This document shows, piece by piece, positions 1,698 through 64,000 of a stretch of DNA of 64,000 nt. The notes below the pieces were generated by a model. It saw only the letters and a program-made list of their open reading frames with translations, had not been told where the DNA came from and ran no database searches. Source of the stretch: Edaphochlamys debaryana (lineage: Eukaryota > Chlorophyta > Chlorophyceae > Chlamydomonadales); assembly GCA_016858145.1 (NCBI GenBank), contig JAEHOE010000027.1, positions 1,037,911 through 1,101,910 on the forward strand. The letters are read 5' to 3'. Every line of letters starts with the position of its first letter. Positions within the stretch are counted from its first letter, which is position 1. The position numbers and the translations under genes are program-made.

Positions 1698-1913
1698 GCA
1701 AGCTAGCGCCCCCTGCACTGTCCCCCTCGTGGGACAGTCAGGCTGGCGCAGTGACCCGTCTCAGCGTGACCTTGGAAGCGGGGACGCGCAGATGGTTTTG
1801 GCGTCCCACGCCCCTTATGCCGCCCTACTCTTGTTGGATTACTTTACGGACTCGACAAGCTCTTGGTGCTGGAGGTTACCGTGTCATCACTACCTTGTCC
1901 TTCCTGTCCTCAG

Positions 1914-46181: not shown

Positions 46182-46440
46182 GGCGCGGCGTCGGCCTGTC
46201 CGCCTAGGTGCGCTGGTGGAGGCATCGGCCAAAGCGGGCTGGGGCGGGGTAGGGCCCGGAGTGGGGCAGGGGTGGGGCAGGGGTGGGCAGGGGTGGGGCT
46301 TGGATTCGTCCGCCGGGTGCGCTGGCGGAGGCACGAGCTCCAGGGAAGTGGGGTGCCAGAACGCTCGCAAGGGCACTGTCCGCCCCGGGGTGAGGCTGGA
46401 GGCGCTGGCGGAGCTGGCTGCGGTACGGGCTGGCGGGTGA
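46150..46440 (+). repeat. Degraded echoes of the last TTC27 exon
   Basis: The terminal coding motif GCGCTGGCGGAGGCACGGGC (near 46150) recurs in altered form near 46212, 46319 and 46403, all after the stop codon, at spacings of about 60-105 bp. Confidence 0.7.
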
Positions 46441-47122
46441 AGGGCTGCTCTTTGGCAAGAAGTGGGGCACGGCAGCCTGTCAGGGCATTCCGGCGGGGTG
46501 CGGGGGCCAGGGTGTACGGTGGTGAGCGTTGGCCTCCAGTTCAGATGAGTCGTCGCATACGGTCGCACCTGCCAGGCAGCACACACGGCGAGACTGGTGG
46601 TGCAGGGTGGTGCGAGAGCGAGACTAGTGGTGGTGTGAAGGGGCCAGACGTGCTTGCATGTCCTAGGTGTGCTGTGACTGAGGCAGGCTGCGGCGCGCCC
46701 TGACTCCTTGGGGCGAGTGTGCAGGCCGGACCCCTGCCCGGTCAGGCCCGGGAAGGGATGGATGGAGACCGGTTGACATGGGACCGAGCCCCCGCCGATG
46801 TGCCACCCCGACGTCGTTGTTGGTTCCTTGTTAGCAAGCTGCTTGACGAAGGTCTCGGTACAGAGTGGGCGGCCGGGGGGCACCGGGTCTGGCGTGTTCT
46901 CGCGGGGACTGGGGGCGACTGGGCCCAGTCTGCCTGATGTTGATGCCGAGGTCGGTCTCGTAGTGCGTTAAGGGTGGTTTGTCGAGAGAGCAACCACACA
47001 ACAAACATACTTGTGCAGTGGCTCGACATTGCTTCGATCGTTCTGTCACTTCGTTCTTAGTTCGCAACAGCTGGGGCCTGTCCCAGCCTGACGGGCCCGG
47101 TCCCGCCGGTCAGGCTGCAGCT
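46182..47122. other. Intergenic region between TTC27 and the LysM gene
   Basis: This holds the 3' flank of TTC27, with exon echoes, and the promoter and leader of the LysM gene. No TGTAA is visible close to the TTC27 stop. No tRNA or supported exon is seen. Confidence 0.5.
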
Positions 47123-50100
47123 ATGGCCATCACTTGCTTGCCCATCTTACAGCTGTTGGCGCTTTCAGCTGTGGTGGCAAATGTCGTGTCGAGTGCGCCC
47201 TTGGACGACAATCTGTCCGTAGACGGTGAGCAGTCACCAAATGACATGCCAGCACGTCCACGCATCAACGCGGGATAAGCTCTTCTTGCAAGGCTCGCCG
47301 GTGTGCGCACTCCGTGTCTGACCGCGCAAATGATGATGCGAATGGGCAACCCACCTCCTGCAGGGAATAGCGGCCGTGTTACCTCTACAGCCGATTTAAG
47401 CCTCCACTGTAGGAGGCTACACATCAGCGGCCCGACAGAGACGTGTGCGACGATCGCCGACATCATCAACCTGTCAGTCGCGGAGCTCGCAGCACTGAAC
47501 CCCCAGCTTCACCCTTGCGATAATGAGCACCCAGTCATGCCGCTGGGGACTCCAGTTTGCGTGTCGGGGGTGCATTCATCTCGAGGTAAGTTCACGGGGC
47601 GACTGGGCCCGTGTCGGCCCCAGTCTGAATTCGTAGGGCCGAGTATGGCGGGGAGGCTGGTGCGTGGACAATGTGGCACGCGGCCCCCTTGCTCGGCGCG
47701 TGACACATTACATGGAACCATGCACTGCCCTTTCCACGCAGATATCACAACTCTTGAACAGGAGAGGCGCGAGCTGCTTGCCAGGCGTGCCCCCAAACCC
47801 CCGGCGCCCCCGGCGCCCCCGCGCCCACCCCCGCGACCTTCCTCCTGCTCGGGCTCCTCCCTCGTGGTCGGCCCGATCGGCCTCTACCGCAACAATAACA
47901 CCGCCTTCAACCATTCTGTGCTGTACGGCAAGTACGGCGCCTTGAATGGCATCAGCTGGCGTGGCGCACCGGGCCGCACGCGGCTCTCCGCGTTCTACAA
48001 TGGCACCGCAGCTGCTAAGGCCCCCCCTGGAGTAGACGGGTCCGACACCGGAGCTGCCTGGTGGGACCCAAGGCTTGCTTATGTCTTCGACTTCGGAGCC
48101 CGGCTTGCGCCTGACGGCAGCATCCGAGCCTTCCGGGTTGACATTCGCCAGTCGGCCTCTGGCGTTGAGTCGTACAAGACGTCTTCATTCGTGGATGGGG
48201 ACCCGTCGGACAGTTTCAACGTTTCGGCGACCCCATGTGGCTCGGACGCGCTGCGGCTGCTGTACCTTGCGGGAACCCATAACAAGACACACGTTCTGTC
48301 GTTGACGCTTGTGTGGGGCAAGGTCCCGCCGCCTCCGCCCCCTGCACCCCGTCCGCCACCCGCGCCTCCAGCTCCCGGGCTGTACCCTCCCGGCGGGCTT
48401 TATCCGCCTGGGATTTATTCTCCCGGGCTGTATCCACATCCACCCAGCTCACCCGTCATGCCGCCGGCCTATCCACCATCGCCCTTGCCGCCCTCTCCGG
48501 TGCCTCAGCCCCCGCGCCCCCCTCGTCGGCCGCGCCCGCAACCCCGCCCTCCTGCCCCGCCCCGCCCCCAGCCACTACCTCCCAAGCCCCCTCGGCACCC
48601 GCTGTCTCCCCCTCGGCACCCGCCCTCGCCTTGCTCCTCCAGCCCCAGCGGCAACCGACTCCTCGTTGGCCCGGTCGGTATCTTCAGTCAGACCGATACG
48701 GCATTTACTCACGTCAACCTCTACAAGGCCTACGGCCAACTGTCAATGGTCAGATGGCAGCTCTCTGAAGCCGCCAACAGTACATCCACGTCTCTGCAAG
48801 CTTCGTACAACGGTACGGCATCTCCCCAGGCTCCCTCAAACATGACTTCCGAGGGTATCCAGGTGGTCCAACTGGACACCCGCACGACGCACGTGTACGA
48901 CGTCTCGTACCAAACTGCATCTGATGGGACCGTCAAGTACTTCCGGCTGTTCATGTACGACAACAAGACGGGGAACAAGTACTCCCGTTTCGTTGGGCCC
49001 GGAGGCTCGGAGGCGGTGGGCGATATCAGCAGGTGGGCGGTTAGAGGGATGCGGGGAGCACTCTCTGTCATACCTTTGGTGTGCTAGGCCTGACCGCGGC
49101 CCCCCTCTACCCTCAATTGCTCAGCGTACTCGCTCCCCTGTCGCCAACCCCGCAGGTCTGCGCTCCCTGTGCCTACAAGGGCCGCGGGACTGACCTCGTG
49201 CTCCTCTACTTCCGCGGTACCTATAACGCCACGCACATCCGCTCCCTCACTTTTGTGTGGGGCTTGCCGCCGGCCTTGCCTACACCACCTCCGATATCTA
49301 ACGTCACTCCCCCGTACGACAACGCAACTTGCATTCGGACCCTTGTCGTCTCTGAGAAGAACTCGTGCCTGCGTGTGGCCGGTGCGGCCAACATCACGGC
49401 CCTGCAGCTGTTTAGCCTCAACCCCCGCCTCAACTGCTCTCGCCTGGTCCCCAAGGACACGGTCGTGTGCACCGAAGGTGAGCCGAAGGGCAGACGGGTA
49501 GATAGGGGGAGGAGGCGGATGGGGGAGGTGTCAGCATCTTTCTATGGTGCGCATGCGCGCTAGATGCCGGTGCGTCACCGTACCGTCACCGTGCTCTCTC
49601 TTTGCTTCTCCCTTGCCCTCCATGCATCCCCGTCCCTAGGTATCCCCGACTTTGTGAGGAAGGCACAACGTGTGGAGCTTCCAGGCTGCAAGCAGTCAGC
49701 CGCCGTCTGGCCTAAGCAGAACTGCTCCGCGTTTGCTGCCGGGGCGGGCATAACACTGGCGGCGTTACGGACCGCCAACCCGGGCCTGGACTGCGCCCTG
49801 CCCCTGGCGGCCGGAACGGTGCTGTGCTTGCGCAGCAAGCCACCAACCCCGCAGCAAGCGTGTAAGTACTTGGCTGTACATAGCGCATGTGGCCAGGCTG
49901 ACAGCGCAGGGGTGGCGACACGAGAGCGCAATCGATGAGGCAGGGAGAAAGCCTGACGGCCGTTGCCCGCCGCGTTCCGTTGCCCATGGCACCTCCCGAT
50001 TCACTTCCGCCCCCGTGACCTTCGCTCCCCAACCCCGCTCTGTTCCGCAGCTCAAGCCCTCCTCGACGTCACAAGCACGTGCTCCAAGCTGCACAATGTC

Positions 50101-51014
50101 CAGACCGCCAACGAGACGTGTGAGAGCCTCACCCAAACCTACAACATCAGCATGTCAGCCCTGCTGCTGCGTAACCCGGGTTTCGACTGCGCGCACATCA
50201 GGCCCGGACACAGGCTGTGTGTGGACGGTGCGGCCGTCTCCGCCGCAGTCATGCGCGCTGCACTAAACCGGCAGTGTCCCGCGGAGCTACGGGTCTCGGC
50301 AGGCGAAACGTGCTGGGGCCTCGCAAGTGGGCGCAACATGACGCTTGCAGAGCTGCGCACGCTCAACCCTCAGCTCGACTGCGGCCGGCTGGTCGTGGGG
50401 CAGACGCTGTGCGCCATGCCGCCACAGGAGAAGGACCAAGGTGGGTAGGGTACCCTTGGGGAGGCAACTAGGCATGCAAAGAGGGAAGGCGCCAATGCGG
50501 GATGCCCAAATGGTATGGTGGCACATGTCACCACACTTGGCACGTCGGCGCTTCACCCCACGCCCACAGGCAATGGTACGACTGGATGCAGCCCGGTGGT
50601 TCGGCTTCAAAGCATCGGGAGCTCTGCCTGCGAGGCCGTCGCCTCCAAGGCCGGCCTGACCCTCGGGGAGCTGCGTGGACTCAACCCCGGCCTAAACTGC
50701 GCCAACCTTACCCTGGGACAGCCGCTGTGCCTGGGGTACAAGGGTAAGCGTTCGTTATGACCGCCGCAACGGCTCTATCTGGCTCTATCTGGCGGCACAG
50801 CTGTAGATAGCTAAATACTAGGCACGATCAGATCTCTCCATGGCTTAGGCCTCCTTGTAACCCACGTACCCCGCTCAGCCCCCTTACCTCCTGCCCCCGT
50901 CCCATGCCCTTGCATGTGCAACACCTTGATGCTCGATGCATGCAGGCAACAACTCCAACGACCCCACCTCCTCGGGCTGCGCCCCCACGCACCGGGTCCG
51001 CCTCAATGACTCGT
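47123..51014 (+). pseudogene. Secreted multi-LysM, Pro-rich wall-type protein, cut by a retrotransposon
   Basis: LysM domains bind chitin- or peptidoglycan-like glycans. ATG 47123 encodes a signal peptide (LPILQLLALSAVVANVVSSA). Exons join in frame: 47123-47225, 47364-47585, 47742-49015, 49156-49477, 49640-49861, 50051-50440, 50570-50743, and 50946 onward. LysM 1 lies in exon 2 (CATIADIINLSVAELAALNP). Exon 3 holds a Pro-rich spacer, a ~150-residue domain with N-glycosylation sequons, a long Pro-rich hinge, then a second copy of that domain finishing in exon 4 (ITSLTFVWG-like end; the two copies end LSLTLVWG and RSLTFVWG). It could be a jacalin-like lectin fold, but this is a guess. Exons 4-7 add five more Cys-bounded LysM units with LNPxLxC motifs. 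Exon 8 starts another (CAPTHRVRLNDS) and is interrupted at about 51015 by the retroelement. The 3' part would lie beyond the window. Expression of a truncated secreted form is possible. Confidence 0.85.
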
Positions 51015-51574
51015 TGTCAGGACACACTATGGGCTACGGCAAAGTGCAGCCGGCTGACCGAACTAATCGGCGAGCAAAGACGCAGGCGGTGCCTGGGCTC
51101 ACTTCTAGGACCAGCGCCGAGGCTCAGCAGCTGGGTCGAGCGAAGGCTCCTCGGGAAGTCGTCGGATGGCACAGAGACTGCGCCGCAGGCGCTAGAGGCA
51201 GCAGAGCAGCAACACTCTAGTAGTTACAGTCACAGCAGAGTAGATCCGCAGCAAGTAGTAGTAGCAGCAGCAGCAGTGCTTCCGACTTGCTAGTCGGAAG
51301 CTGGGCGTTCGCCTAAGTCCCCCCGATCGGAAGGGCTCATTGCCGTACCTCAGGTGCTCATGCCACGTGTCCCACGAGGCAAACCCTGGTGTCACAACCC
51401 TAGTCACGACCCTAGACGTACCCTCCAGCACAAACCAGCGGACCGCCCACAAACCTCCAGCATCCTACCTCAACTCCCAACCGGCAACCATACTGTGACA
51501 GCGACGGTACTGTGCTCTGTCAGCTGTCAGGACACACTATGGGCTACGGCAAAGTGCAGCCGGCTGACCGAACT
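51015..51574 (-). repeat. LTR-like block bounded by a 50 bp direct repeat
   Basis: A perfect 50 bp sequence occurs at 51015-51064 and 51525-51574 in the same orientation, enclosing 460 bp of unrelated sequence. The outer edge of the first copy is the LysM gene junction. The outer edge of the second abuts the polypurine tract. The block therefore sits where a 3' LTR of the minus-strand element should be, about 560 bp long. Identical sequence at both ends of one LTR is not usual. It contains CAG/TAG trinucleotide runs (about 51230-51277) and a hairpin at 51278-51301. Confidence 0.7.
51278..51301. other. Perfect hairpin, 10 bp stem and 4-base loop
   Basis: GCTTCCGACT at 51278-51287 pairs with AGTCGGAAGC at 51292-51301 across the loop TGCT. 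It lies inside the LTR-like block and may form a structure at the RNA 3' end of the element. Confidence 0.85.
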
Positions 51575-51585
51575 CCCCCCCTTGG
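51575..51585 (-). promoter_or_regulatory. Polypurine tract of the retroelement
   Basis: On the minus strand the sequence reads CCAAGGGGGGG directly before the LTR-like block. A purine run at this site primes plus-strand DNA synthesis in LTR retrotransposons. Its position also supports 51574 as the LTR boundary. Confidence 0.75.
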
Positions 51586-51771
51586 CGACTCTAGAGCCAA
51601 AAACACGAAGTCAGGCGGCCTCGAAGCCATACGCTAAGCCAGAAACAGTTTGCTCAAGCTGTACACAACAGTTCCCTCCGGCAGAGAAACCTCAATCCTC
51701 CCCCATGCTCGCTAAGTGTCCTCACCAGGCTACAGCCAGCAGAACTCATCTCCCTCGGTTCACCACCCTAT

Positions 51772-54700
51772 CTACGCATGCACCCAGTGCCCAGCGCGTC
51801 CGTTCCCGATACCCCTCATCAGCTGCGCCCTCATGGTCGCATCCCGGAACACTAACAGCCAAGCTCCAGGCTTTCCGTTGACGTATCCACAGGTGTCTCC
51901 AGTGATGATGGCCAGCCGCTCGTCCTCCGTGAAGGTGTTGAGCAGGGCGGCCCATGCGTCCGGCGGAGCCGTAAGCATGTGCCGTGGGATGAAGGCCACG
52001 ACTAGCGGCACCATGGCGATGGCCAGGGGCAGCCAGAAGGGCAGAAGCTCCGGGTGCGGAGCGGAGATGATGAGCCAGGACTCGCCGGGCGTGGCGAGGC
52101 GGCGGTAGGTCCCAGGTTGCAGGGGATCCAAGCGGGGCCAGCCCGGGGCCTCGGTGGCCCGGTCCCCGTTGGCGCAGACGGAGTAGCCTCTCGCGCGGAG
52201 CGCGTTGGCCAGGGTCTCATCGCCGGCGCACGGGTCCAGAATGACGGGCGATCGGCTTGCGTCCAGGTGGTCCAGAAGCAGGTTGAGCGCCTCCTCAGCG
52301 GGCGCAGGGTGCGTACCCGTGGGAAAGGACTTAGGCAGGCTGGAGGCCAGCCCGGGCACGGAGCGCAGCTGCAGCAGCGCAGCAGCTCGGGCGCTTGGCG
52401 AAGACAGGTCCCAGGTGTCGGGCAGGACTAAGGGCGGGCCCCCAGCCGCCGTGACGAGGGCCGTGGTGGACGGTTGAGCGCATGCTTTGGCTGCTCGCAG
52501 AGTCAGGCGCTCCGTGGTGCCGTCAGTGTAGCGCGCCTCAACGGGGCGAGAGCGCGGCTCGTCCGACTTGTAGTGCAGGGTGCCCCTACGGTTCACGAAG
52601 GTGTTGGTCGCGGGGTCTCGGACCTTGCGGGAGCAGGGAACGCCCTCCAGCGCCTTGGCCTCGTTGAGCCGACGGCGCGCTTGAGCGGAGGGGAAGATCT
52701 GCGGCTGCGGTGCCTCGCGCGGTACGGGGGCAGGTAGCCGATCAATTGTTGCCGGTGTCACGCCGCGGGCATGGCAGTCGGGGCAAGTCCAGGTGCCGCG
52801 GGGCACGCGCTGGAGCGGGGGTCGAAGGCAGTACAGGTGCCAGCCGGTGCCGCACCCGTCGCACATGACCATCTTGGACTCGTCGCCTGGGAAGGCACAG
52901 ATCTCGCAGGGCAGGTCCAGCGGCGGCACCGCGATGCGAGGATCGACGATTGGGTCCAGGTCTTGGAGGTGGCAGGGAGCAAGGTTGCTCACGTGCTCCT
53001 TGCGGATGGTACCGTCGCGGCCCATCAGCTCGGCCACTCCCTCTGGGCTCACGGCCACAATGCGGAGCACGGTGTCGCGGACGGGCAGTTGGAGCGTGTT
53101 GTTCTGATTGCGCAGGATGACGTAGACGTAGTCGCCCACGTTGAATCGCACACGGGCGTAGTTGTGGCGGTCTCGCCACTGCGCCGTCAGCAAGTTCTGG
53201 CCGTTGAAAGGCGCGGCCTGTTGCACGTTGTGCGAGCGCAGCATGACGAGTTGGTCGGCCCGTTGCGGATCGGCATCAGGGTCGATCGCCTCTGCCCACA
53301 GCTCGGCGGCGCCGAGGGGCACAGCAGGCGGTGCGCCGTACATGAGCTCAAACGGGGACTTGCCGGTGGACTTCTGAGGGGAGCAGCGGTAGCCCATCAG
53401 GACACAGGGCAGGTATTCGTCCCAGCGTTCGGCGGAGGCGTACTGGGCGCAGTACTTGCGCAGAGAGCGTTTGCAGACCTGCACGACCCTTTCCGCAGCG
53501 CCGTTGGCCTGCGGGTGGTTGGGCGACGTGTGACGATGGTCGATGAAGCATTGTTCGAGCAGGGCGGCAAAGGCGCCTTGGAACTCGGTGCCTCCATCGG
53601 TCACCACCTCGGCGGGCGCCGAGAAGCGGGCTAGGACGTTGGCTAGGAAGGCGTTGGCCACCTCCTCAGAGCCCTTGGAGCGAAGCGGGATCATCTCTAC
53701 GTGCTTGGTCCAAGCCTCGACGCAGACCATGACGTACTCGTAGCCGGAGCTCGTGCGCGTGAGAGGCCCAGCCAGGTCCACGTGCCAGCGGAAGAAGGGC
53801 CCGCGGATTGGCAGGGGGTGCAGCTCGGGCGGAGTGACGTTGCCAACGGTGTTGGCGCGATCGCACAGGGGGCAGCGCTGCACCACATACTCAACGTCCC
53901 TGGACATGCCTTGCCACCAGTAGCCGTTCTGGACCAGGCACAGGGTGCGGCGAGCTCCCCAGTGCCCCAGGCGGTGGTGGGGCTCCTGGATGATGGCTTG
54001 GCGGCGCTCAGGTGGAGGTACTTCGCGCATGGTGCTGTTGGGCATGCGGCGGTACAGGCGGTTGCTCCGGTCGTCGAAACGGTAATTGATAGCACGACGC
54101 GCTACCCGTCTAGCCGCTTCTCCGACAATGCCGGCGGGGCAGGTGCCCTGGGCGAGGTAGTGGAGCAGTTGCTTGTCCTCCCAAGGGTCGCAGTAGCGGG
54201 ACTCCTGTGCGTCGGCGACGGCCGAGACCAGGGCAGAAGTCCAGTGCTCGTTGGATTGGTGGTGCTGCAGCGCGGTGGTGACCAGGGCTGCAGGCTGCGC
54301 CGCTGTGTTGTTTTCAATCTCCCTACCCCCCCCCAGCGGGGCAGCCGGTGGCGCCTGCTGAGGTGGCATGCGAGCCATGTGGTGCGCGGTGACGAAAGCG
54401 CGTTGAAGGGCTTGTGCGCAGAGAAAGATGCGTGCAGCAGCTGGAGTCTGCAGACCCTGCTGCAGGGCGTCGATGGCGGAGGGCACGGCGAGGGTGCCGT
54501 CGTTGCGCCGCTCCAGCAGCGAAGCAGGCTCCAGGCCGGTCAGGGCGGCTATCTCCTCTGGCAGCAGCGGCGAAGGCACGGCCGAGGCGGTGGAGGCTAG
54601 CTGGATAGTGGCGAGGTTGCCCGGCGGGAGGACGGTGACGGGGCGACCCGGCACGTCGCAGGCCGAGTAGGGCTCGCTGAGGGGTGCCTCGCAGAGGGGC

Positions 54701-57700
54701 AGGCGGCGCGAGGGTGCCGCTGCAGCTGCCGAGAGGTTACTGGGGCTCCAGGCACCAGATGTTGCCACCTTGCGCAGGTGCTCGGGAGCCGCGAGGTTGG
54801 TGCAGAAGGCACGCAGCGAGTGCTGGGCCCTGCCCATGGCAGCGGTGTCCAGCGTGAGGCAGGTCCCGAAGGGCGTGTCCGCAGACGCTGGAGGCTCGCG
54901 CTCCAGCAGGAAGCCGGGCGGGAGTCGGGGTTGCAGCTCTTGGAGCCTGCCAAGGAGCTCTAGCACTCTATCTGGCGGAGCCAGGGTCGAGTCTAGGTTG
55001 CCGAGCACCAACCACTGCTGCCCTGACCTGGCGGAAGCAGCAAGGAGGTGGTCGTTGGTGAGCGGACCGGGTGGCAGCGCGGCCCAAGGGCTTTCAACGG
55101 CGGAGCCGCGAAGCTGTCGGGGAAAGGAGGCACGGAGCCAGCCCAGGCGGCGGCGCAGCAGCGAATGCTCTTGCGCGGGCGCGCCCAGGGTGTGATAACG
55201 GCGCACGGTCCAGCCCGCCCGGAGGCAGGCCTCGAGGCCCGTGGCGGCGGAGGTACCGCACTCCACGACTACCAGCCCTTCCGTGAGGGCGTGCTCCAGG
55301 AAGTGGTGCGAGAGCAGGCTGGTGTCGAGGGCGGCGGTGCGGCCCTCGGCAACTCGGCGGGGGCGCGGCGGCGAAAGCGAGGTCGCCCGGAGGGCGTCTC
55401 GGGCCTCGCGCACGACGCGGTTGGCGGTGAGGTTGGCCTGTCGGGTCAGGAGCTGAGCCGCAGTGCACTCGGGGTCGGCGAAGCGCTCGACGGGGTCAGA
55501 GGCCGTGCCGTTGCCGCCAGCGAGCCACTCGTCGGGAGAGGGAGCGAGGGCGGGGCCCTGTCCCGTGACGGTGGCCAGCAGGGAGTACTCCTCACGAGCG
55601 CACAGCGCCAGGACTTGGACTGCAGACATGAGCGCCGTGGGTTCCGCCGAGGGCGTGACGGTCGGATACGGGACGAGCCGAGGTGGCGGCGGCTTGGCGT
55701 CGGAGTCCTCATCCATGCGGGCTCCGGAGCCATCAGCACTCGAGGGCAGAGGCGAGCGGCTGAGGGTGTCAGCGTTATAGTGGAGCTGGCCTGGCCGATG
55801 GGCGACATCGAAGTCGTACTCTTGCATCAAGAGTGCCCAGCGAGCGTACTGCCCCACTAGGTTTTGGTTCTCCATCAGCCAGAGCAGGGGCGCGTGGTCG
55901 GTGACCAGGATGAAGCGTGGGCCTATCAGGTAGGGGCGCAGCATCTTCATTGCCCAGCAGGCAGCCAGCATCTCACCCTTGTAGGAGGTGTAGTTGCGCT
56001 TGTGCACGTTGAGTGAGCGCGAGATGCAGGCGACCATGTACTCGTGCCCTTCGTCATCCAGTTGGCCTAGGACGGCGCTGATGCCTACATTGGAAAAGTC
56101 AGTGTGCAGGATCAGTTGACGGTTGGGATCAGGCTTGCGCAGCAGCCGGTCGTTGGTCGAGAACTCGGCCTTGAGCTGGTCCAAGGCCTCCTGGTGGCGC
56201 GGCTGCCAGGTCTCGGGACCCCACGTGACGCCCTTCTTGGTGAGCTCGTAGAGCGGGTTGGCGATGCAGGCGAAGCGGGGGATGTAACAACGATAGTAGT
56301 TGCAGAGGCCGAGCAGGGCTTGGAGCTCGGTCAGCGAGCGAGGGGGCTGGATGGCTTGGATCGCAGCGACCTTGGCCTGAACCGGGCGGAGCCCGTCAGC
56401 GCTCACCATGTGGCCCAGGAACTCTATCTTGTCTGCCGCGACCACGGTCTTGTCAGGATGCAGCTTGATGTTGATCTCGTCCAACATCGCGAGAAACCGC
56501 GCGAGATTCTGCTCGTGCTCCTCTGCCGTGCGGCCGGTTACTGCGGCGTCGTCGACAAACAGGTACACGCAGTCCTGCAGGCCGTACTTCCGCACGTGGT
56601 GCGAAAGTACTCGCTGCCAAGCTGCCGTGGCGTTGACGGCGCCGTACATCAACCGTTTGTACCGCCAGAGGGTGTTGTTCCACCAGAACGAGGTCTTGTC
56701 GCGATCCTCCTCGGCGAGCGGCAGTTGGTTGAACGCGGCGCGGCAGTCGCACTTAGTAATGAATCGCGCGCCCAGGATGCAATCGAACAGGTCTTCCGGC
56801 GCCGGCGGCCGGAAATAATCGCGCACGCTCGCTGCATTTATACGGCGCGCGTCCGCACAATAGCGGTACTCGTTGGATTCGTACGAACCGTCAATTCCCT
56901 TCTTACGTGGCAGGGTTACATTCATCGCGTACTGCGTGGAGTTGGACGGCTCGATAATGTCGCCGTACAGCTCGCGGCACTTGGCATCCTCGACCAACCG
57001 CTCGGCAGCCGAATGTCGTCGCGGCGCTTCTAATATCGGGTTGCTGTGCTTGAGTTCGAGTCTCATTGGCCCCAACTCCCCTCGGTAGCAACCAATGTCC
57101 TTGAGGCTCCTAACGAATAAGTGGTCATATTTGGAAAACAGCGTCTTGAGGCTATCGCGCTGCTCCTCAGTCATATCAGGTCGAATGCATAAAGTGTAGC
57201 CTGCTTCTTGCTTAACTAAGGTGGAGTCTTCGGGCGGTGCCCTAGCCCCATCAGGAGTCGTGACATTGGCGGCCGAGGGCCTTGACGCAGCTACGTTAGG
57301 CGGCTCTGTCGGCGGAGCCGCAGGCCTCTCTACACTAGATGCGCTTGCAGGTGCGGTGCCCGTGACAAAGGTGCTTGGTGGTTCTGCCAGAGGTGTCTCA
57401 GCCGAGGGCGAGCCCGCAGGCGGGGCCTGGGACGGTGAGCGCCTCGCCGGCGGTGCCGGGTCACGCAGCTGGATGCGCCGCATGGCTTGCTCCAGCGGGG
57501 TGGTGGCGGGCGACTGCTCCAGCTGCGCCCAGCTCGGAGCCAGCCACTGCCCCCCCTGAGGGTAAGCCGGATGCGGAACGCAGTTGGGCGTCGCGTCCGA
57601 CAGCCGCCAGCAGCCCAGGAAGACCAGCATCACGATGGCGAAGGTGAAGGTCTTGTAGCTGTTGAGGCGCCAGCGCGCCGGAGTCGCCGACTTGGTGTTG

Positions 57701-58740
57701 GCGTCGGGCGGTGCGTACTTGCGCTTGGACACCTTGGCGCCCGCCGTGGCCGCCCAGCGCTCCGCCCGTTGCTGCAGGAACTGTCGCTTGACCAGGCTCA
57801 GGTACCGGCGACGCGCCAGCTCCATAGCAGCGAAGGCCTGCGCACGCAGCTCCTCCTGTCGGCGCAGCTCGCGCCTCGCTTGGCGGGCCAGCTTGCGGTT
57901 GATGCTGCGCGTGACGCGGCGCAGGATCATGCAGCCCAGCCTCCACTGGACGTGCTCCATCCAGTCATCCAGCTGCTCGTCTAGCTCCGCGTCATCATCA
58001 GACTCCTCCTCACTGCTGGTTGAGTGCCAGTCCTCGTCCTCGGCGTCGGCGGTGTAGGCACCGAAGGTGTCGTACGGCTGCACGGGGCCGTCGACAGGGC
58101 TGGCCGCGATCAGGCGCGCGATGGCCCTGGGGCAGTGCGGGAGGGGAACCCAGATGCCGAAGGTGGTGGCGCCGTAAGCAATAGTGCGGGCACCGAGATC
58201 GCAGAGCAGGTGGAGGGCACGAGCGAAGGACACGCTGTAGACGTCATGGTCAATCAGGCCGCAGCCGGGGAGGAAGCAGGAGCCCTTGGCCTGCGACTCA
58301 GTACCGGCGGTGCCGGGAGCCGAGGACTCACCAGTCTCGAGGGGCTCCGCAGCGGGGCTGCGACCGGCGGCGCCGGGCCCGTTGATGCTGCGCTTGGCGG
58401 GGGTGTTGGCTTTGACCCAGAGGGGCAGCTGGCGCGGAGTCGCACTGCACTTGCTGTCGGGCAGCTCCTCCTTCCTCCGTTCGCCGGCGGGGCCGGGAGC
58501 GGGGTCACCGTTGGCGGAGGCGGGTTGCTCGTCCTGCGCGGTGGCGTCGGCGCAGACCTCGGGCTTGGCCGCGAGCGGCGGGGCCGGCTCGAGCAGCTTT
58601 GCAGACGAGGAGAGCTTGGACTCGGGCTCAGGCTTGGACTCGGGCTCGGACTCTACCCCCCCCCTGCTCGAAGCCGGGGCTGCCGCTAGGGCGCAGAAGC
58701 GGATGGTGTTGTCCGTGTACCGGTTGCAGAGCCAGAGCCG
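51772..58740 (-). CDS. Retrotransposon pol: RT, RNase H, C5-methyltransferase-like, integrase, PHD finger, second methyltransferase-like domain
   Basis: The frame is open from about 58740 to a stop at 51772. Residues below count from 58233, where GTG is not a real start: the frame continues upstream and probably depends on the protease frame. A membrane-like segment FTFAIVMLVFLGCW lies near residue 195. RT shows YCADARRIN (~455), TKCDCRAAFNQLPL (~500) and the catalytic FVDD (56548-56559). RNase H shows HTDFSNVGIS (~708) and VTDHAPLLWLM (~778). A methyltransferase-like domain spans ~970-1150. The integrase has an HH...CPLC zinc site (~1415-1460) and catalytic D, D and E in WHVDLAGPL, VVTDGGTEF and NGAAERVV (~1483, 1543, 1581). 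A complete C4HC3 PHD finger follows (~1773-1825), then a second Rossmann-like domain (~1995-2120). The long intact frame contrasts with the broken gag side. Confidence 0.92.
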   Translation of the reverse strand, partial: RLWLCNRYTDNTIRFCALAAAPASSRGGVESEPESKPEPESKLSSSAKLLEPAPPLAAKPEVCADATAQDEQPASANGDPAPGPAGERRKEELPDSKCSATPRQLPLWVKANTPAKRSINGPGAAGRSPAAEPLETGESSAPGTAGTESQAKGSCFLPGCGLIDHDVYSVSFARALHLLCDLGARTIAYGATTFGIWVPLPHCPRAIARLIAASPVDGPVQPYDTFGAYTADAEDEDWHSTSSEEESDDDAELDEQLDDWMEHVQWRLGCMILRRVTRSINRKLARQARRELRRQEELRAQAFAAMELARRRYLSLVKRQFLQQRAERWAATAGAKVSKRKYAPPDANTKSATPARWRLNSYKTFTFAIVMLVFLGCWRLSDATPNCVPHPAYPQGGQWLAPSWAQLEQSPATTPLEQAMRRIQLRDPAPPARRSPSQAPPAGSPSAETPLAEPPSTFVTGTAPASASSVERPAAPPTEPPNVAASRPSAANVTTPDGARAPPEDSTLVKQEAGYTLCIRPDMTEEQRDSLKTLFSKYDHLFVRSLKDIGCYRGELGPMRLELKHSNPILEAPRRHSAAERLVEDAKCRELYGDIIEPSNSTQYAMNVTLPRKKGIDGSYESNEYRYCADARRINAASVRDYFRPPAPEDLFDCILGARFITKCDCRAAFNQLPLAEEDRDKTSFWWNNTLWRYKRLMYGAVNATAAWQRVLSHHVRKYGLQDCVYLFVDDAAVTGRTAEEHEQNLARFLAMLDEINIKLHPDKTVVAADKIEFLGHMVSADGLRPVQAKVAAIQAIQPPRSLTELQALLGLCNYYRCYIPRFACIANPLYELTKKGVTWGPETWQPRHQEALDQLKAEFSTNDRLLRKPDPNRQLILHTDFSNVGISAVLGQLDDEGHEYMVACISRSLNVHKRNYTSYKGEMLAACWAMKMLRPYLIGPRFILVTDHAPLLWLMENQNLVGQYARWALLMQEYDFDVAHRPGQLHYNADTLSRSPLPSSADGSGARMDEDSDAKPPPPRLVPYPTVTPSAEPTALMSAVQVLALCAREEYSLLATVTGQGPALAPSPDEWLAGGNGTASDPVERFADPECTAAQLLTRQANLTANRVVREARDALRATSLSPPRPRRVAEGRTAALDTSLLSHHFLEHALTEGLVVVECGTSAATGLEACLRAGWTVRRYHTLGAPAQEHSLLRRRLGWLRASFPRQLRGSAVESPWAALPPGPLTNDHLLAASARSGQQWLVLGNLDSTLAPPDRVLELLGRLQELQPRLPPGFLLEREPPASADTPFGTCLTLDTAAMGRAQHSLRAFCTNLAAPEHLRKVATSGAWSPSNLSAAAAAPSRRLPLCEAPLSEPYSACDVPGRPVTVLPPGNLATIQLASTASAVPSPLLPEEIAALTGLEPASLLERRNDGTLAVPSAIDALQQGLQTPAAARIFLCAQALQRAFVTAHHMARMPPQQAPPAAPLGGGREIENNTAAQPAALVTTALQHHQSNEHWTSALVSAVADAQESRYCDPWEDKQLLHYLAQGTCPAGIVGEAARRVARRAINYRFDDRSNRLYRRMPNSTMREVPPPERRQAIIQEPHHRLGHWGARRTLCLVQNGYWWQGMSRDVEYVVQRCPLCDRANTVGNVTPPELHPLPIRGPFFRWHVDLAGPLTRTSSGYEYVMVCVEAWTKHVEMIPLRSKGSEEVANAFLANVLARFSAPAEVVTDGGTEFQGAFAALLEQCFIDHRHTSPNHPQANGAAERVVQVCKRSLRKYCAQYASAERWDEYLPCVLMGYRCSPQKSTGKSPFELMYGAPPAVPLGAAELWAEAIDPDADPQRADQLVMLRSHNVQQAAPFNGQNLLTAQWRDRHNYARVRFNVGDYVYVILRNQNNTLQLPVRDTVLRIVAVSPEGVAELMGRDGTIRKEHVSNLAPCHLQDLDPIVDPRIAVPPLDLPCEICAFPGDESKMVMCDGCGTGWHLYCLRPPLQRVPRGTWTCPDCHARGVTPATIDRLPAPVPREAPQPQIFPSAQARRRLNEAKALEGVPCSRKVRDPATNTFVNRRGTLHYKSDEPRSRPVEARYTDGTTERLTLRAAKACAQPSTTALVTAAGGPPLVLPDTWDLSSPSARAAALLQLRSVPGLASSLPKSFPTGTHPAPAEEALNLLLDHLDASRSPVILDPCAGDETLANALRARGYSVCANGDRATEAPGWPRLDPLQPGTYRRLATPGESWLIISAPHPELLPFWLPLAIAMVPLVVAFIPRHMLTAPPDAWAALLNTFTEDERLAIITGDTCGYVNGKPGAWLLVFRDATMRAQLMRGIGNGRAGHWVHA
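51850..52260 (-). other. C-terminal Rossmann-type (SAM methyltransferase-like) domain in pol
   Basis: VILDPCAGDETLANALRARG (52187-52246) resembles the DPFAGxGT SAM-binding motif of amino-methyltransferases. LIISAPHPELLPF (52036-52075) sits where such enzymes carry D/N/S-PP-Y/F/W, but the two prolines are not adjacent. WLPLAIAMVPLVVAFIPRHML follows as a hydrophobic strand region. The domain ends the polyprotein, after the PHD finger. It may be a degenerate DNA or RNA adenine methyltransferase, or a non-catalytic relic. Confidence 0.5.
52765..52915 (-). other. PHD finger in the integrase C-terminal region
   Basis: Residues CEICAFPGDESKMVMCDGCG and then GWHLYCLRPP and WTCPDCHARG supply the full C4HC3 zinc-ligand set and the conserved Trp. 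PHD fingers commonly read histone H3 N-terminal tails. Placed after the integrase core, it could steer integration to chosen chromatin, in the way chromodomains do in chromoviruses. That function is inferred. Confidence 0.9.
54780..55330 (-). other. Domain resembling a cytosine-C5 DNA methyltransferase, inside pol
   Basis: Between RNase H and integrase the protein reads VVVECGTSAATGLEACLRAG (55210-55275), which aligns with the SAM-binding motif I of C5 methyltransferases (typically DLFSGxGGxxxxLxxAG). Further on, WLVLGNLDSTL (54982-55015) takes the place of motif IV, whose catalytic Pro-Cys-Gln is absent. GFLLERE (~54900) sits where the ENV motif belongs. LDTAAMGRAQHSLRAFCTNL (54789-54850) resembles the motif VIII QRRxRxxxxN region. 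Order and spacing fit, but the lost Cys predicts no standard catalysis. Homology is inferred by eye only. Confidence 0.55.
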
Positions 58741-59905
58741 AGTGCGCCAGGAGGGCGGTGTCGTCGACGGGGTAGCTCAGCCAGTACTCGTCGCCTGAGG
58801 TGCGGACGCTGATGTTTGCCCGCAGCAGGGAGAGGAATGGGCGCCCAAACACGATGCCGTAGGGCAGGTCCTCCACGGGCAGGACGGGTGCTACGGGCAC
58901 TTGCACCATGATCGCTGCGGGTTCACCTGGGGCGCCGTCGCGTCCCAGGGTGCCGTTGATGAAGATGCGTACGTCGCGTGCCGTGCGCTTGGTGGAGTAG
59001 CACGACTTCTTGACACCGCGCGCTCCGAAGACCTTGATCACCTCGTCCTCGTGGTAGAGACCGGTGGTAGTGACCGCTGTGTCTTGCAGCACGGCAACGG
59101 GGACGCCGTTGAAGAGGTCTTGCCGCATGAGGCAGCATGCCCCGGTGAGGCCCATGTCGACGCCGTACGACGCCGACGTGATGTCGAACCCCGCGCACGT
59201 GATCTCGATCTTGGGGAGGCCTTGTGACTCCCACCGGGATCGCTCGTTGTCGCCAAACAGCAGACCGGTGCACAGGTCGTTACGGTCCATGGGCGTGATG
59301 TCGTCAGTGAGTGAGGACCCGTGGTAGCAGGCGGATGCCAGGACGCAGACGGGAGGCGGCGGCCTCGGCAGGGCGACCGCGGCTTCGCGTTCCGTATAGC
59401 GCTGATACGTGTCCGCGCAGCCCTCGCCGAAGATCACGTCTCCTACCATGATGGCCGAAGCCCGGCGCCACATGTAGGCTTGCTGGCTGGCCGGCAGGGC
59501 TTGGGGGTCCGAACCAGGTTGCTCGGCCGGTAGCGGAGGCACGAGGGCATCGCGGACTATTGGGGCAGGCAGCGGTGGCGGCAGGTAAGGGTACCGCGAC
59601 GCCAGAGCCGCAGTCAGCACCGGGGCCTTGGGGGCGAGCTCGGCCCCCGCGGGACGCGGGCCTTGGTCCGCCGAAGCTGCCACCTCCGGAGCTGCGGGCG
59701 GAGCCCGAGTCGCGGGGCTCGCGGTCGCTTGGCGCTTGGGCGAAGGCACCGCAGGCGGGGCCTGGGCGCCAGCCTCAAGCGCTTCTCGGTTGCGCACCTG
59801 GGCGCTGCCGCTGGGACCCGCCGCCGCGGCGTCGTGGGCCCGGCGGCTGCGGGCGGCTGCGGGCGTTGCCGAGGTCGAGGGCCCGGCGGCTGCGGCAGGG
59901 GGCAC
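58628..59905 (-). CDS. Retropepsin-like protease frame of the retroelement
   Basis: About 425 residues are open from an ATG at 59905; the frame probably starts further upstream, before a frameshift near 60020. The first ~110 residues are Ala/Pro-rich. The core reads NGVPVAVLQDTAVTTTGLYH near 59060-59120 and, ~80 residues later, GIVFGRPFLSLLRANISV, matching the D-T-G and I-hLGRDFL layout of retroviral-type aspartic proteases. The usual DTG is DTA here. The frame ends at 58628 and overlaps the pol frame by about 110 nt in a +1 relation, which could be either a recoding site or a simple mutation. Confidence 0.7.
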   Translation of the reverse strand: MPPAAAAGPSTSATPAAARSRRAHDAAAAGPSGSAQVRNREALEAGAQAPPAVPSPKRQATASPATRAPPAAPEVAASADQGPRPAGAELAPKAPVLTAALASRYPYLPPPLPAPIVRDALVPPLPAEQPGSDPQALPASQQAYMWRRASAIMVGDVIFGEGCADTYQRYTEREAAVALPRPPPPVCVLASACYHGSSLTDDITPMDRNDLCTGLLFGDNERSRWESQGLPKIEITCAGFDITSASYGVDMGLTGACCLMRQDLFNGVPVAVLQDTAVTTTGLYHEDEVIKVFGARGVKKSCYSTKRTARDVRIFINGTLGRDGAPGEPAAIMVQVPVAPVLPVEDLPYGIVFGRPFLSLLRANISVRTSGDEYWLSYPVDDTALLAHSALALQPVHGQHHPLLRPSGSPGFEQGGGRVRARVQA

Positions 59906-60009
59906 CTCAGGGGGCCGGCTGCGCTCCTTGCGCGGCGGTGGCGGGGCAGGCTGAGGTGCCGGGAGCGGTCGCTGCTCCCGCCAGCCGATGGTCTGCCCCT
60001 TGAAGGCGA

Positions 60010-63000
60010 GCCAGTCCCGAGCTTACGGCACCAGTCGATGTAAGCACCGATGAAGTGGGTACTGGAGTGGATGTGGCGCTCACTCTGGCGGTAGACGGAG
60101 ACGTTGGGGCGATCTAGGTCGGGCCCATGCGCGCCAGCACCTCCTCCGTCCACCGGCACTCACGGCGAAGCTGCTTGTCACCTCGGTCGTACGCCTTGGC
60201 CAGGGGGAGCGCAGGCAGGTCCTCAGGCCATGGTTGCAGATCGACCTCGTTAATGGGCTGGAAGAAGCCCTTGATGTCCAGGCTGCCGAGCGAGTCCTGC
60301 AGCTCCGGGGTCCACCGCAGCAGCGTGGGTCCGCCCAGCAAGGCGTGCAGCAGGCAGTAGTCCTGGCTGTGCCGCGACCAAGGTGGGTAGCGCAGCGGGT
60401 TGCCGAGCCGGGGGCCGGCACCTCGGTAGTTCTCGTGACCAGGGAAGACGGCCAGATCTCGGTAAGCCTGCAGCTTCGTCGCCTCGCGCAGACAGCTGCA
60501 GAGGGTGCAGGGGCGGCGTGAGCCTGAGAGCCGTCCAGGCGTCCCAGGGGATCGGCTGCGGGACCTCTGCGGAGAGCCCGAAGGTCGGCGGCCGCCAGCT
60601 CCACCACTGCCACTGCGGCGGGGTTGACGGTCGCCTGAACGCTCGCGCTCGTGGTCACGGCCTCGGCTCTCAGCACCTCGGTCGCGGGAGCGGCCGCGGC
60701 TGGACTGACGCCCTTCATCTCGGGATGAGGCGGGACGCCGTGGGTGGGTCGTGCGTAGCCAGGGCCTGGATCTCGGGACCCCCTTCGGCGGAGCCGAGGC
60801 GGCGGACGTCGGCGCTTGGGTGTGGTGCGGCTCCACCTCCTCGAGTTGGGGCCCAGACAGCTCCCCTCGCGCGTCAGCCTCCGCCAGCTCCTCGTCCTCG
60901 TACACGAGCATCTCCTCCTCGTCCAGCTCCCCCGCAGTGTCGAGGCTGGTGGCGAAGGCCACGCCGGCGCCGTCCGCGGGGCTCCAGTCCCATATGCGAA
61001 TGCGGCGGTAGCTCAGCCCCAGCGCAGACGCCAGCGGGCGAGCGCAGTCTGCTGGGATCGAACCGTACGGTGGGGGATGTGCACGGAGACGGTCCTGAGC
61101 CGGGCCTCGGCCTCGTCCACCGGGGGTGGCGAGGGCTCAGAGGGCAGCAGGGCCGTGGCGTAGTAGGCGCGGAGCGAGGCTGCCACCTTCTCCAGCTCCG
61201 GCGTGCCGGAACCAGCGCCACGTGGCCGTTGATGGTCTCGTCGCCCTGGTGCACCCGGAGCGGAGCGGATGTGGCGGGCGCGGGTAGTAGTCGTACAGCA
61301 TGCCGCACTGGTTGGAAAAGCGGCCCGCCCCACAGCAGGTGAAGAGACCGGCCGCCCAGTCGTCGGGGACGACCAGGAAATCCCCGCAACGCGCAGCTCG
61401 GACGCGGTGCCAGGCGTGATGACGTTCCACACGCGGGCGATGCCGAGGGGTCGGCTGCTCTGGCGCAGGGACTTGACGCCGGCGTTACAGGGCTCCAGCT
61501 TGACGCCGAGGCTCTCGTACAAGCTCTGGACCATCAGGCCCACCGTGTTGCACATCGTGTCGGGACCGATGCCGGGAGGGAAGATCAGGGTGCCGTCGGC
61601 CTTGAGCAGGCCAGCGCCGCGCTTGGGGTCGCTGTTATCGATGTAGTGGAGGGAGCCGGCGAGCTCGCTCTTCAAGTACCGCTTGATCTCCTCTACCTTG
61701 GAGCCGGCGGTGGCGGCCGTGGATGAGCAGGCGAGGCGGAGGCCTCGGGCGCCACCTCGGGGGTCTTGAGCAGATCTAGCAGCTCGGCCATCATCTTGCC
61801 CAGGATCTCGAGCGCCGCCGCCGTCTTGCCCGGCGCCATGGGGCCGAAGCGGACGTTAGAGCTGCCGTCCTTCATGTGCGAGAAGGAGACCTGCTCCACG
61901 GGCGGCAGGCGCATGGAGCTGGGCAGCGCCCGGGGGCAGCTGCCGGAAGCTGGCAGGCATGGGCTCCTTGGTGGTGTTGAAGGCCGCGGCCGAGGAGGCC
62001 TGCGGTGGCCACACGGTCTGGCCCTGGATTGGCGTTGGCGGCCCAGTCGGGGACACGGCGGGCCGGTCTCCTTGCTGGCGAAGCTGCCGACGCTGTTGCA
62101 CGCGCTCATACCCCCCCCAGCTGGGAGACCGAACCGACGTGGCCAGGGCTGCGCCGGGGCGTGCCGTACTCCACGTACGTGACGAACGTACTGTTGTACG
62201 GGTGCTGGGCCACCGAGAGAACGTCCGTGTGCAGAGCGGACGCCGAGCTCGGCGCGTACGAGGATGGCGGCGAGGGGGGGGTGGGTGAGCGAGAAAGGGG
62301 GGGCGGGCAGGGGGGCGGGGGCGGCGGCGGCGGCGGGGCGGGGGGCGCCGGGGCCCGGAGGGAGGCCGAGGACGAAGGCACTGCAGGCGGAGCCTGAGGG
62401 CCCTGGCCGTAGCCGTAGCTGTGGCCGTACGACGAGGGCGGCGGCGTGGAGTAGCCGTAGCCGTAGCCGTAGGACGCGGGACCCTGGCCGTAGTGCAGCG
62501 CCGCAGGCGGAGCCTGGGACTGCAGGTACGGCGAGGCCTCAGCAGCGTAGGCCGCGTGCTGCGGGTTGCCCTTGCCTCGGTTGTTGTCCTTGGGCTTGGC
62601 GTAGTCCTGCCTGCGGGGGCGGTCGCCCTGCGGCTGCTGCTGGCGCGGCGCCGAGAGCAGCGCCGCGTACTCCGGCTTCTTGCGGACCAGCTCCGCCCAG
62701 GCGTTGTCCATGTTGATGGACTTGGGGTGGCCGGGCAGCGCGGTCAGGTTGCCGGCCTTGGCGTTGGCCGTGCAGAAGTCCACCGAGTGGTGCTTGGCGT
62801 TGCAGAAGGAGCAGTCGCCCGTGGAGCCGGTGGCGGGGCCGGGCTCCGCCTTGGGCCAGCGGGGCTTGCTGCCGCCGCTCGACTGCTGCTGCTGCTGGCG
62901 CCCGCCCGCCTGGCCGCCGTAGCCCTTGCCGTGGTCCTGGCGACCGGAGTGCGTGGCCAGAGCCGAGACGCTGTTGGCCATGCGCTCGATCTGCGACGAG

Positions 63001-63797
63001 AGGCGGGCGATGTCGGCCGAGCCCACGCCGGGGCGCTGGTGCTCTCGGAGACGGGGCCAGCAGACGTGGCGAACGCCTTGAACTTCTTGGGGTCCTTGAC
63101 CTTGCTGTCGGCGGCCTCCTGCTCGACCCGGAAGGCACTGTAGATCTCGTGGCAGCGGACGATGGCCTTGGCGAGGTCCCAGGCGGTGGGGTCGCTGTCC
63201 TCCTTGCCCAGTAGCTGACCTTGATGGTGTCATTCATGAAGCTGGCCTTGACCCAGTGCGACTCCATGACGGCCCGGAGCCAGCGCTCGGTGCGGACGCG
63301 CCTCGAGATGCTGGCCTCGCTGATGGGCCTGACGATGGAGAGGAAGCGGGCGCCCGCCGTCATGGGGTCCTCGAGGGGCTCGACGCCGAAGTTGTCGTAG
63401 CTCTTCTTGGACGTGGGGTCCTCGCGGCCGAACTTCTTGGCCAGGGCCTCCAGCAGGTACTCGCAGGCGTCGAGCTTGAGGTCAGGGAGCTTGGCCTGGC
63501 CCTTGTACTCGGGGGGATTGGCGACGCCGGCGTGGAGCAGGGTCCACTTGTCCTTGTGCTCAGTCAGGGCCTCGGCGCCCTCGGTCGCACACCAGCCTTG
63601 CACGACCAGGTTGAGGTTGTTGCCCCCATCCTTGGTGAGCCCACCGGCCATGCGGCGAGGATGAGCTCGGCTATCAGGGCCTTGTTGTCGCCTCGGTCGC
63701 TCATGGCCCACTGCTTGACGAACAGGCGAGCGGACTGCAGGAAGGCGGGAAGGGAAGTTGGCTTAGCATCGAAGCTGGGGCAGTTGCGGTCGCCCAT
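60010..63797 (-). pseudogene. Gag-like region with zinc knuckle, broken by many frameshifts
   Basis: Protein-like sequence continues along this stretch but jumps between the three minus frames. Open segments are 63797-63564, 63711-62539, 63233-62106, 62109-61693, 61675-61013, 60962-60114 and 60159-59614. Apparent single-base shifts fall near 63655, 63212, 63045, 62105, 61390, 61240, 61035, 60118 and 60020. The start is probably ATG 63797 (MGDRNCPSF) or further upstream, outside the window. A CX2CX4HX4C zinc knuckle, CSFCNAKHHSVDFC, lies at about 62771-62812. Tyr-Gly-rich and Pro-rich repeats follow (62290-62500). I describe it as disrupted and do not join the segments. Assembly error in homopolymers is an alternative to true decay. 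Confidence 0.75.
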
Positions 63798-64000
63798 GTC
63801 TTCGTCTTCACTCCACCTGGGCGGAGCCCGGGGAGCTAGCTGGGCAGCAGGTGCCGGCGCAGGCAGCGCCGGGGCGGGAGGAGGTTGCTCCCCGTCGCCC
63901 TCCTCAGCAGGTGCTAAGTCTAGAGCCCCCGCAGCCGCAGGCTGGGGAGGCTGTGCTTGATCGGCCGGGGCGGGGCCCGGCCGAGATCTTGCTGCTCACC

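What the first reader, a model, noticed from the sequence alone, without database searches (positions are those of the whole stretch)
54780..55330. Cytosine methyltransferase-like domain captured inside a gypsy-type pol, between RNase H and integrase
The frame carries, in order, matches to C5-methyltransferase motif I, the motif IV position, the motif VI position and the motif VIII region. The catalytic Pro-Cys-Gln is replaced by NLDSTL. Capture of DNA methyltransferases by retrotransposons has been described in dinoflagellates and in the charophyte Klebsormidium (recalled from the literature, not checked here). A copy in a chlorophyte-type element, inserted between RNase H and integrase and seemingly catalytically dead, would be new to me. 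It may bind DNA or SAM, or be a relic.
Basis: partly seen in the sequence, partly recalled or inferred. Interest (0 to 1): 0.9.

Follow-up and report, generated by a model that had tools for sequence, protein, structure and literature searches.

The report
Dead DNMT3 domain in algal retrotransposon
A jumping gene in the genome of what is very likely a green alga carries, between two of its own enzymes, a relative of a DNA-methylating enzyme that lacks the active-site residues yet changes slowly under selection, so it likely works as a DNA- or chromatin-binding scaffold rather than as an enzyme.

The parts
51772..58776 (-). Pol frame, 2334 codons without a stop
56407..56775 (-). Reverse transcriptase (RVT_1, aa 668-790)
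   Evidence: Pfam E 4.9e-17
55816..56208 (-). RNase H (aa 857-987)
   Evidence: Pfam E 2.1e-30 and 5.9e-25
54397..55329 (-). DNMT3-type C5-methyltransferase domain without its active site (about aa 1150-1460)
54973..55014 (-). Remnant of the motif IV catalytic loop (WLVLGNLDSTLAPP, aa 1255-1268); Pro-Cys-Gln lost and loop shortened
   Evidence: alignments; counts
53848..54018 (-). Integrase H2C2 zinc-binding domain (aa 1587-1643)
   Evidence: Pfam E 3.1e-15
53512..53793 (-). Integrase core (rve, aa 1662-1755)
   Evidence: Pfam E 1.8e-07 (31.8 bits, just under the 32.6 cut-off)
52774..52908 (-). PHD finger (aa 1957-2001)
   Evidence: Pfam E 1e-10
52447..52674 (-). Tudor-like stretch (about aa 2035-2110)
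   Evidence: Named by homology only: the homologous place in P0145 hits PF21743 Tudor at E 3.8e-5; shared profile; no Pfam hit in the window itself
51775..52299 (-). C-terminal amino-methyltransferase-like domain (about aa 2160-2334), DPCAGDE and SAPH where many relatives have DPxxGxG and SPPF/SPWF
51525..51574 (-). Repeat B1 (50 bp), next to a purine tract AAGGGGGGG
51065..51523 (-). Repeat A2 (matches the 432/440-bp A repeats of two complete copies)
51015..51064 (-). Repeat B2 (50 bp), 3' end of the element
58777..64000 (-). 5' part of the element (gag side, split among several frames in this copy); the contig ends at 64000, so repeat A1 is not in the window
   Evidence: alignment to two complete copies; contig end; open frames; no Pfam hit for the corresponding frame of the C3 copy

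Best explanation
Between RNase H and integrase, the Pol polyprotein of this Ty3/gypsy retrotransposon carries a DNMT3-type cytosine methyltransferase domain whose catalytic residues are gone, and which is likely kept as a non-catalytic DNA- or chromatin-binding scaffold of the integration complex. Shown: homology to live-looking DNMT3-like domains at the same place in elements of other green algae; loss of the catalytic Cys, of the Asn of ENV, of most of the catalytic loop, and in most sequences of the motif I glycines and motif II acid; dN/dS well below 1; co-occurrence with PHD, Tudor-like and amino-methyltransferase-like stretches downstream of the integrase. Inferred: an ancestral element used the domain to methylate its own cDNA or target. 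In the lineage of the window catalysis was lost while the parts of the fold that bind DNA or pair subunits stayed useful, as in mammalian DNMT3L. There it would hold cDNA, integrase and target nucleosome together, with the PHD/Tudor-like readers choosing the chromatin. No binding or partner was tested.
Against: No binding, partner or expression data; 'scaffold' is by analogy with DNMT3L. The domain evolves faster than the core enzymes (integrase 0.036-0.064 in the same six pairs; 0.030 against 0.256 among young copies) and about as fast as the linkers on either side (0.13-0.23 and 0.11-0.19), so a slow decline is not excluded. The pair W-L033 (52% identity) gives 0.40, but there dS is 1.2 and integrase gives 0.39 too; two near-identical pairs are uninformative (L035-L036 0.55 at dS 0.011; L031-L041 dS 0). 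dS is near 1 in the six pairs, so those ratios are rough. The AlphaFold2 alignment contained 5 live sequences among 13, so the fold is not independent of them.
Confidence: 0.5

Rival explanations
1. A relic: the domain lost its function with its active site and persists only because it sits in the middle of a polyprotein, where it must stay in frame and fold well enough not to harm its neighbours.
For: Active site and cofactor motifs eroded; dN/dS higher than in RT, RNase H and integrase in most pairs and about equal to that of the linkers on either side; 0.40 in the most distant pair.
Against: dN/dS 0.14-0.19 in six pairs, upper bootstrap bound 0.25 over 313-321 codons in four pairs; the domain is kept in the frame in each of the subfamilies read; the catalytic loop was shortened in frame while the rest was kept.
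Confidence: 0.25
2. A decoy or regulator of host methylation: the dead domain pairs with host DNMT3/DRM-type enzymes, as DNMT3L and DNMT3B3 pair with DNMT3A, and either blocks or redirects them away from new copies.
For: Closest folds are DNMT3A/3B, solved in complexes with the partners DNMT3L and DNMT3B3 (that these partners are inactive is recalled); retained fold without catalytic residues.
Against: No DNA_methylase (PF00145) match at E <= 0.001 was found in the six-frame search of the host genome (introns may hide exons), so no host partner is known here; conservation of the pairing surface was not tested.
Confidence: 0.12
3. Still a methyltransferase by another route: the element methylates through its C-terminal M.TaqI-like domain, and the DNMT3-like domain only presents the DNA.
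Against: In the window the C-terminal catalytic place reads SAPH where many relatives have SPPF/SPWF, so that domain is probably also inactive; its dN/dS is 0.264, 0.295 and 0.362 (the last over 43 codons) in comparisons of the window with the 73% subfamily.
Confidence: 0.08
4. Not a methyltransferase relative at all: a chance run of motif-like words in a Pol linker.
For: No Pfam hit for the window domain and no PDB hit better than E 0.59 for the dead-only profile.
Confidence: 0.01

Closest known systems
KnitGypsy-Dnmt3 of Klebsormidium nitens (de Mendoza et al. 2018, PMC5890265; I read parts 1-2 of 7, section 9 and search passages)
   Same: Dnmt3-related domain inside the Pol of an LTR/gypsy element; purifying selection on it (Ka/Ks < 0.2 there); terminal repeats in the DIRS order, as found here.
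   Different: There the key functional residues are conserved; here they are lost. Host group differs (charophyte; here chlorophyte relatives). Position of the DNMT within Pol and kinship to the present clade could not be compared: no Klebsormidium sequence was in hand.
Live-looking DNMT-gypsy elements of Chlorophyceae found here (Scenedesmus PABB004 and NREL 46B-D3, Monoraphidium neglectum, Haematococcus lacustris, Chlamydomonas eustigma, many unnamed)
   Same: Order RNase H - DNMT - H2C2 integrase, with a PHD in those scanned; sequence homology over the whole domain.
   Different: Catalytic Cys kept in 175 of 175, mostly as ECQ or PCQ; in the window's lineage in none of 12.
DNMT3L / DNMT3B3 (catalytically inactive vertebrate DNMT3 partners; function recalled, PDB titles seen)
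   Same: DNMT3 fold retained without catalysis.
   Different: Host proteins acting on DNMT3A; here a retrotransposon domain with no known partner.
SymbioDIRS-Dnmt3 and SymbioLINE-Dnmt of dinoflagellates (PMC5890265)
   Same: DNMT captured by a retrotransposon.
   Different: DIRS and LINE elements, key DNMT positions conserved, different hosts.
Gypsy-10_Ec32 of Ectocarpus with a Tudor domain (PMC12477816, passages read)
   Same: Histone-reader domain at the C-terminal side of a gypsy Pol.
   Different: No DNMT domain mentioned for it in the passages seen; here PHD plus a Tudor-like stretch plus a methyltransferase-like domain.

Membership tests
C5-cytosine DNA methyltransferases, DNMT3 type | DNMT fold with motifs in the order I-IV-VI-VIII-IX-X | tested here: met
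   motifs IX/X degenerate
C5-cytosine DNA methyltransferases, DNMT3 type | Catalytic Cys of motif IV | tested here: not met
   0 of 12 sequences of the lineage; loop shortened
C5-cytosine DNA methyltransferases, DNMT3 type | ENV-type Glu-Asn of motif VI | tested here: not met
   Asn in 0 of 12, Glu in 6 of 12
C5-cytosine DNA methyltransferases, DNMT3 type | SAM-binding glycines of motif I and acid of motif II | tested here: not met
   Gly 4 of 12 and 2 of 12; Asp or Glu in 3 of 12; live: 119, 120 and 120 of 120. In the window itself all three are lost. That these residues bind SAM is recalled
C5-cytosine DNA methyltransferases, DNMT3 type | Score above the Pfam DNA_methylase cut-off (22 bits) | tested here: not met
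   no hit for the window; of 7 live relatives scanned 2 pass (P0138 42.5, P0012 23.4) and 5 fall below (P0007 16.9, P0145 20.9, P0032 18.6, P0060 14.5, P0141 14.5)
Ty3/gypsy retrotransposons | RT - RNase H - integrase order with H2C2 and rve | tested here: met
   (rve just under its cut-off)
Ty3/gypsy retrotransposons | Short target-site duplication and TG...CA ends | tested here: met
   4-bp duplications AGCC and AGTG and ends TGACAG...CCTGACA, read by eye in the 2 complete copies examined; the window copy is cut off by the contig end
Ty3/gypsy retrotransposons | Two plain long terminal repeats | tested here: not met
   split repeats A - internal - B - A - B in 2 complete copies; B pairs in 7 of 10 further loci of other subfamilies
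DIRS (tyrosine-recombinase) retrotransposons | Tyrosine recombinase | tested here: not met
   Pol carries an H2C2/rve integrase and gives no recombinase hit; no Pfam hit in the 5' frame of the C3 copy
KnitGypsy-Dnmt3-type elements | Gypsy Pol with Dnmt3-related domain and DIRS-like repeat order | tested here: met
   against the description
KnitGypsy-Dnmt3-type elements | Conserved key functional DNMT residues | tested here: not met
KnitGypsy-Dnmt3-type elements | Common descent with the Klebsormidium elements | not tested
DNMT3L-like inactive scaffold | Stimulates or places an active DNMT through the DNMT3 dimer surface | not testable with these tools
   analogy only

The most novel reading that the evidence does not exclude
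A retrotransposon-borne counterpart of DNMT3L: a green-algal Ty3 clade captured a DNMT3 enzyme inside Pol, then at least two lineages gave up catalysis and kept the fold as a chromatin-binding part of the integration machine, next to PHD/Tudor-like readers and a second, M.TaqI-like methyltransferase domain, in an element that combines a DDE integrase with DIRS-like split repeats.
Probability: 0.37. Interest if true: 0.85.

Novelty: new variant of a known kind. Interest (0 to 1): 0.74.

Why it matters
It turns 'why do retrotransposons carry DNA methyltransferases?' into a testable comparison: live-looking (PCQ, ECQ) and dead versions of the same domain sit at the same place in one set of related elements, and in the host genome of the window each subfamily that could be read is dead. 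If the domain matters without catalysis, DNA or chromatin binding, not methylation, may be the feature that selection keeps. It also shows that censuses by Pfam DNA_methylase miss such domains: PF00145 found none at E <= 0.001 in a genome with 126 matches to this one.

Tried and rejected
The dead-only profile against PDB gave nothing useful (best E 0.59). A search for ungapped direct repeats within 44000-64000 found none of 60 bp or more; the ends came instead from two complete copies. NCBIfam gave a C5-methyltransferase match (TIGR00675) for P0138 (2.7e-9) and P0036 (1.4e-5), both under its curated cut-off, and none for P0001.

Single origin of the dead state: the second dead family (L050/L051) falls among ECQ lineages in the integrase trees, so two losses are favoured (2 changes), but holding all dead rows together is not rejected (AU p 0.166), and no well-supported set holds L051. 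One search failed on a row name and was rerun, with L051 in place of L050, whose integrase is cut short. Live copies in the host genome: a Haematococcus live domain found 111 matches; the pattern W-x-C-Q-D-[LF] gave 15 genome hits against 7 for the reversed control, none inside an element match; a PCQ-loop query found 11 matches, each starting at query residue 13 or later, beyond the PCQ. Several matches (C1, C87, C20, C18:347257) were not read. CpG observed/expected is 0.93 in the element against 0.80 in the rest of the window: no CpG depletion, weak evidence.

Rows dropped: L039 and L040 (broken copies) were left out of the tree and census; L032, L035 and L042 as near copies; P0006 because its domain looks frameshifted after motif I (in the profile alignment a C, from ACN, stands at the catalytic column there, in that out-of-frame stretch). 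The gag-side comparison was poorly aligned and is not used.

Literature: ten searches of the open-access library. None of the listed titles and abstract starts is about a dead DNMT domain in a chlorophyte gypsy element; only the top rows of each search were listed, subscription papers are mostly not held, and Iyer et al. 2011, cited in PMC5890265 for DNMTs linked to reverse transcriptases, was not looked up. A passage of PMC6338049 says that DAM- and DCM-encoding Ty3/Gypsy and DIRS elements occur in green algae, so the general kind is in print. VIA lists second-look Foldseek's own matches; families missing there are not excluded.

Full report
What is in the window. The minus strand holds one open frame of 2334 codons, 51772-58776. 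Pfam finds reverse transcriptase, RNase H, integrase zinc finger, integrase core and a PHD finger in the Ty3/gypsy order, and nothing in the 600 residues between RNase H and integrase. The window ends at a contig end, so the 5' terminus of the element lies outside. The host assembly has 141.9 Mb in 502 contigs; the Edaphochlamys debaryana assembly in PMC8226300 (passages) has 142.14 Mb in 527 contigs at 67.1% G+C, so that species is the likely host. This was not tested further.

Copies and relatives. Sixty-three of them cover the whole query and 62 of these have no stop (my count from the listing). Protein search finds the same region in Gonium pectorale (53%), Tetrabaena socialis (34-39%) and an unnamed NCBI protein (42%), and in a metagenome protein, P0007, that has WLVVAGWECQDLS, ENT and AHRLRNFWTN at the same place. 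A search with P0007 gave 232 proteins, of which 120 are listed; 42 of those 120 carry a precomputed PF00145 (my count). A third search gave 88. In P0138 (Scenedesmus) PF00145 scores 42.5 bits between RNase H and H2C2; of 7 live relatives scanned, 2 pass the cut-off of 22.

What was lost. In 120 aligned live domains the catalytic Cys and the ENV Glu-Asn are invariant: 31 read PCQ, 70 ECQ, 19 other. Over all 175 live proteins the Cys is kept in 175 and EN in 174, one being truncated there. These proteins were found with Cys-bearing queries, so this is not an unbiased sample. In 12 sequences of the window's lineage (the window, 7 other copies from this genome, 1 Gonium, 2 Tetrabaena, 1 unnamed) the Cys is kept in 0, the Asn in 0, the motif II acid in 3; the loop between the PCQ place and the next helix has 4-8 residues against 21. 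Kept: the Glu of motif I (11 of 12), the later Gly (11 of 12) and Leu (12 of 12) of motif I, the Asn of motif VIII (12 of 12).

What was kept. dN/dS (NG86) of the domain is 0.14-0.19 in six pairs (window with two copies of the 73% subfamily, and four pairs within the 48% subfamily), against 0.036-0.064 for the integrase core. With codon bootstraps in four pairs it is 0.140-0.180, bounds 0.105-0.248. The flanking linkers give similar values. The most distant pair, window and L033, gives 0.40 with dS 1.2, and its integrase 0.39; two near-identical pairs are uninformative. Among 30 young copies the domain gives 0.256, against 0.074 and 0.030 for parts of RNase H and integrase in 26 copies. Selection is present but weaker than on the core enzymes.

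Trees. The 12 dead sequences form one side of a branch in the domain tree with the catalytic loop left out (SH-aLRT 98), and 11 dead rows do so in the integrase tree (98; 8 dead rows in 94% of 200 bootstrap trees, which used 54 of 105 live rows). A second dead family of the same genome (L050/L051: motif I intact, catalytic stretch WARGDTT) sits elsewhere, next to ECQ lineages, which suggests a second loss; one loss is not rejected (AU p 0.166). No copy with a W-x-C-Q-D loop was found in the host genome, but four groups of matches could not be read.

Element ends. Two complete copies show an unusual order: A (432 or 440 bp) - internal - B (50 bp) - A - B, about 14.1 kb, with both A copies 100% identical within each element and 4-bp duplications AGCC and AGTG. 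B has 106 matches with up to 3 mismatches, with 0 in the reversed control; many of the listed ones lie in pairs about 500 bp apart. Four such pairs share a private mismatch (C17, C39, C88, C166), as if both copies were made from one template in a cycle; four others differ by one base (C18, C22, C28, C62). B pairs occur in 7 of 10 further loci of other subfamilies. A purine tract lies beside B1, not beside A. PMC5890265 reports the DIRS repeat order for KnitGypsy-Dnmt3. Sharing both rare traits suggests a common clade, but this was not tested.

Mechanism. Sequence shows a DNMT3 relative without catalytic and cofactor residues, held by selection, inside Pol between RNase H and integrase. I infer that it binds cDNA, target DNA or nucleosomes, or pairs subunits, as DNMT3L does, and so helps integrase; the PHD and Tudor-like parts would choose chromatin. 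The ancestral role was probably methylation of the element's own DNA; the abstract of PMC5890265 says that retrotransposon DNMTs can methylate CG de novo. A relic in slow decline and a decoy for host DNMTs remain possible.

Novelty. Captured DNMT3 in a gypsy Pol is known (PMC5890265), DNA-methylase-bearing Ty3/Gypsy elements in green algae are mentioned in passing (PMC6338049, passage), and a Tudor domain in a gypsy element was reported in 2025 (PMC12477816). New to me, within the searches named in Tried and rejected: the chlorophycean set of elements with the domain between RNase H and integrase, its dead but conserved branch, and the second methyltransferase-like domain.

Noticed in passing
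window 51015-51574; L046, L044, L049, L047: Split direct repeats A-internal-B-A-B in an element with a DDE integrase and 4-bp target-site duplications; the purine tract abuts B1, and B1/A2 meet at TGACA-GC-TGACAG. How such ends are copied and cut is unexplained.
   Followed up: partly
window 51775-52299: C-terminal M.TaqI-like methyltransferase domain, found with ECQ rather than PCQ elements among the relatives, with its own catalytic motif altered in the window.
   Followed up: partly
L050, L051 and other places: A second family in the same genome with a dead DNMT-like domain (motif I intact, catalytic stretch WARGDTT), possibly an independent loss.
   Followed up: partly
P0007-P0126: In most live relatives the Pro of PCQ is Glu: 76 of 120 have Glu there, next to the catalytic Cys. 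Whether these enzymes are active is unknown.
   Followed up: no
whole host genome: No PF00145 match at E <= 0.001 in a six-frame search of 141.9 Mb; host DNMT genes may be hidden by introns or absent.
   Followed up: no
P0003: The Tetrabaena socialis protein carries the domain's motif I stretch and the integrase twice, as if two elements or a misassembly were fused.
   Followed up: no
P0112: A protein of this algal set is filed under a Minisyncoccia bacterium MAG, probably a binning error.
   Followed up: no
P0012, P0032: G-patch matches between the DNMT domain and the integrase (E 1.6e-4 and 3e-5).
   Followed up: no
window 49957-50448: Open frame with two LysM stretches (E 3.2e-16) downstream of a proline-rich frame at 47279-49087.
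   Followed up: no
window 5185-6556: Tandem array with periods of 143-144, 333 and 477 bp.
   Followed up: no
window 1-1802: Direct duplication: 1-907 repeated at 899-1802 with 98.9% identity.
   Followed up: no
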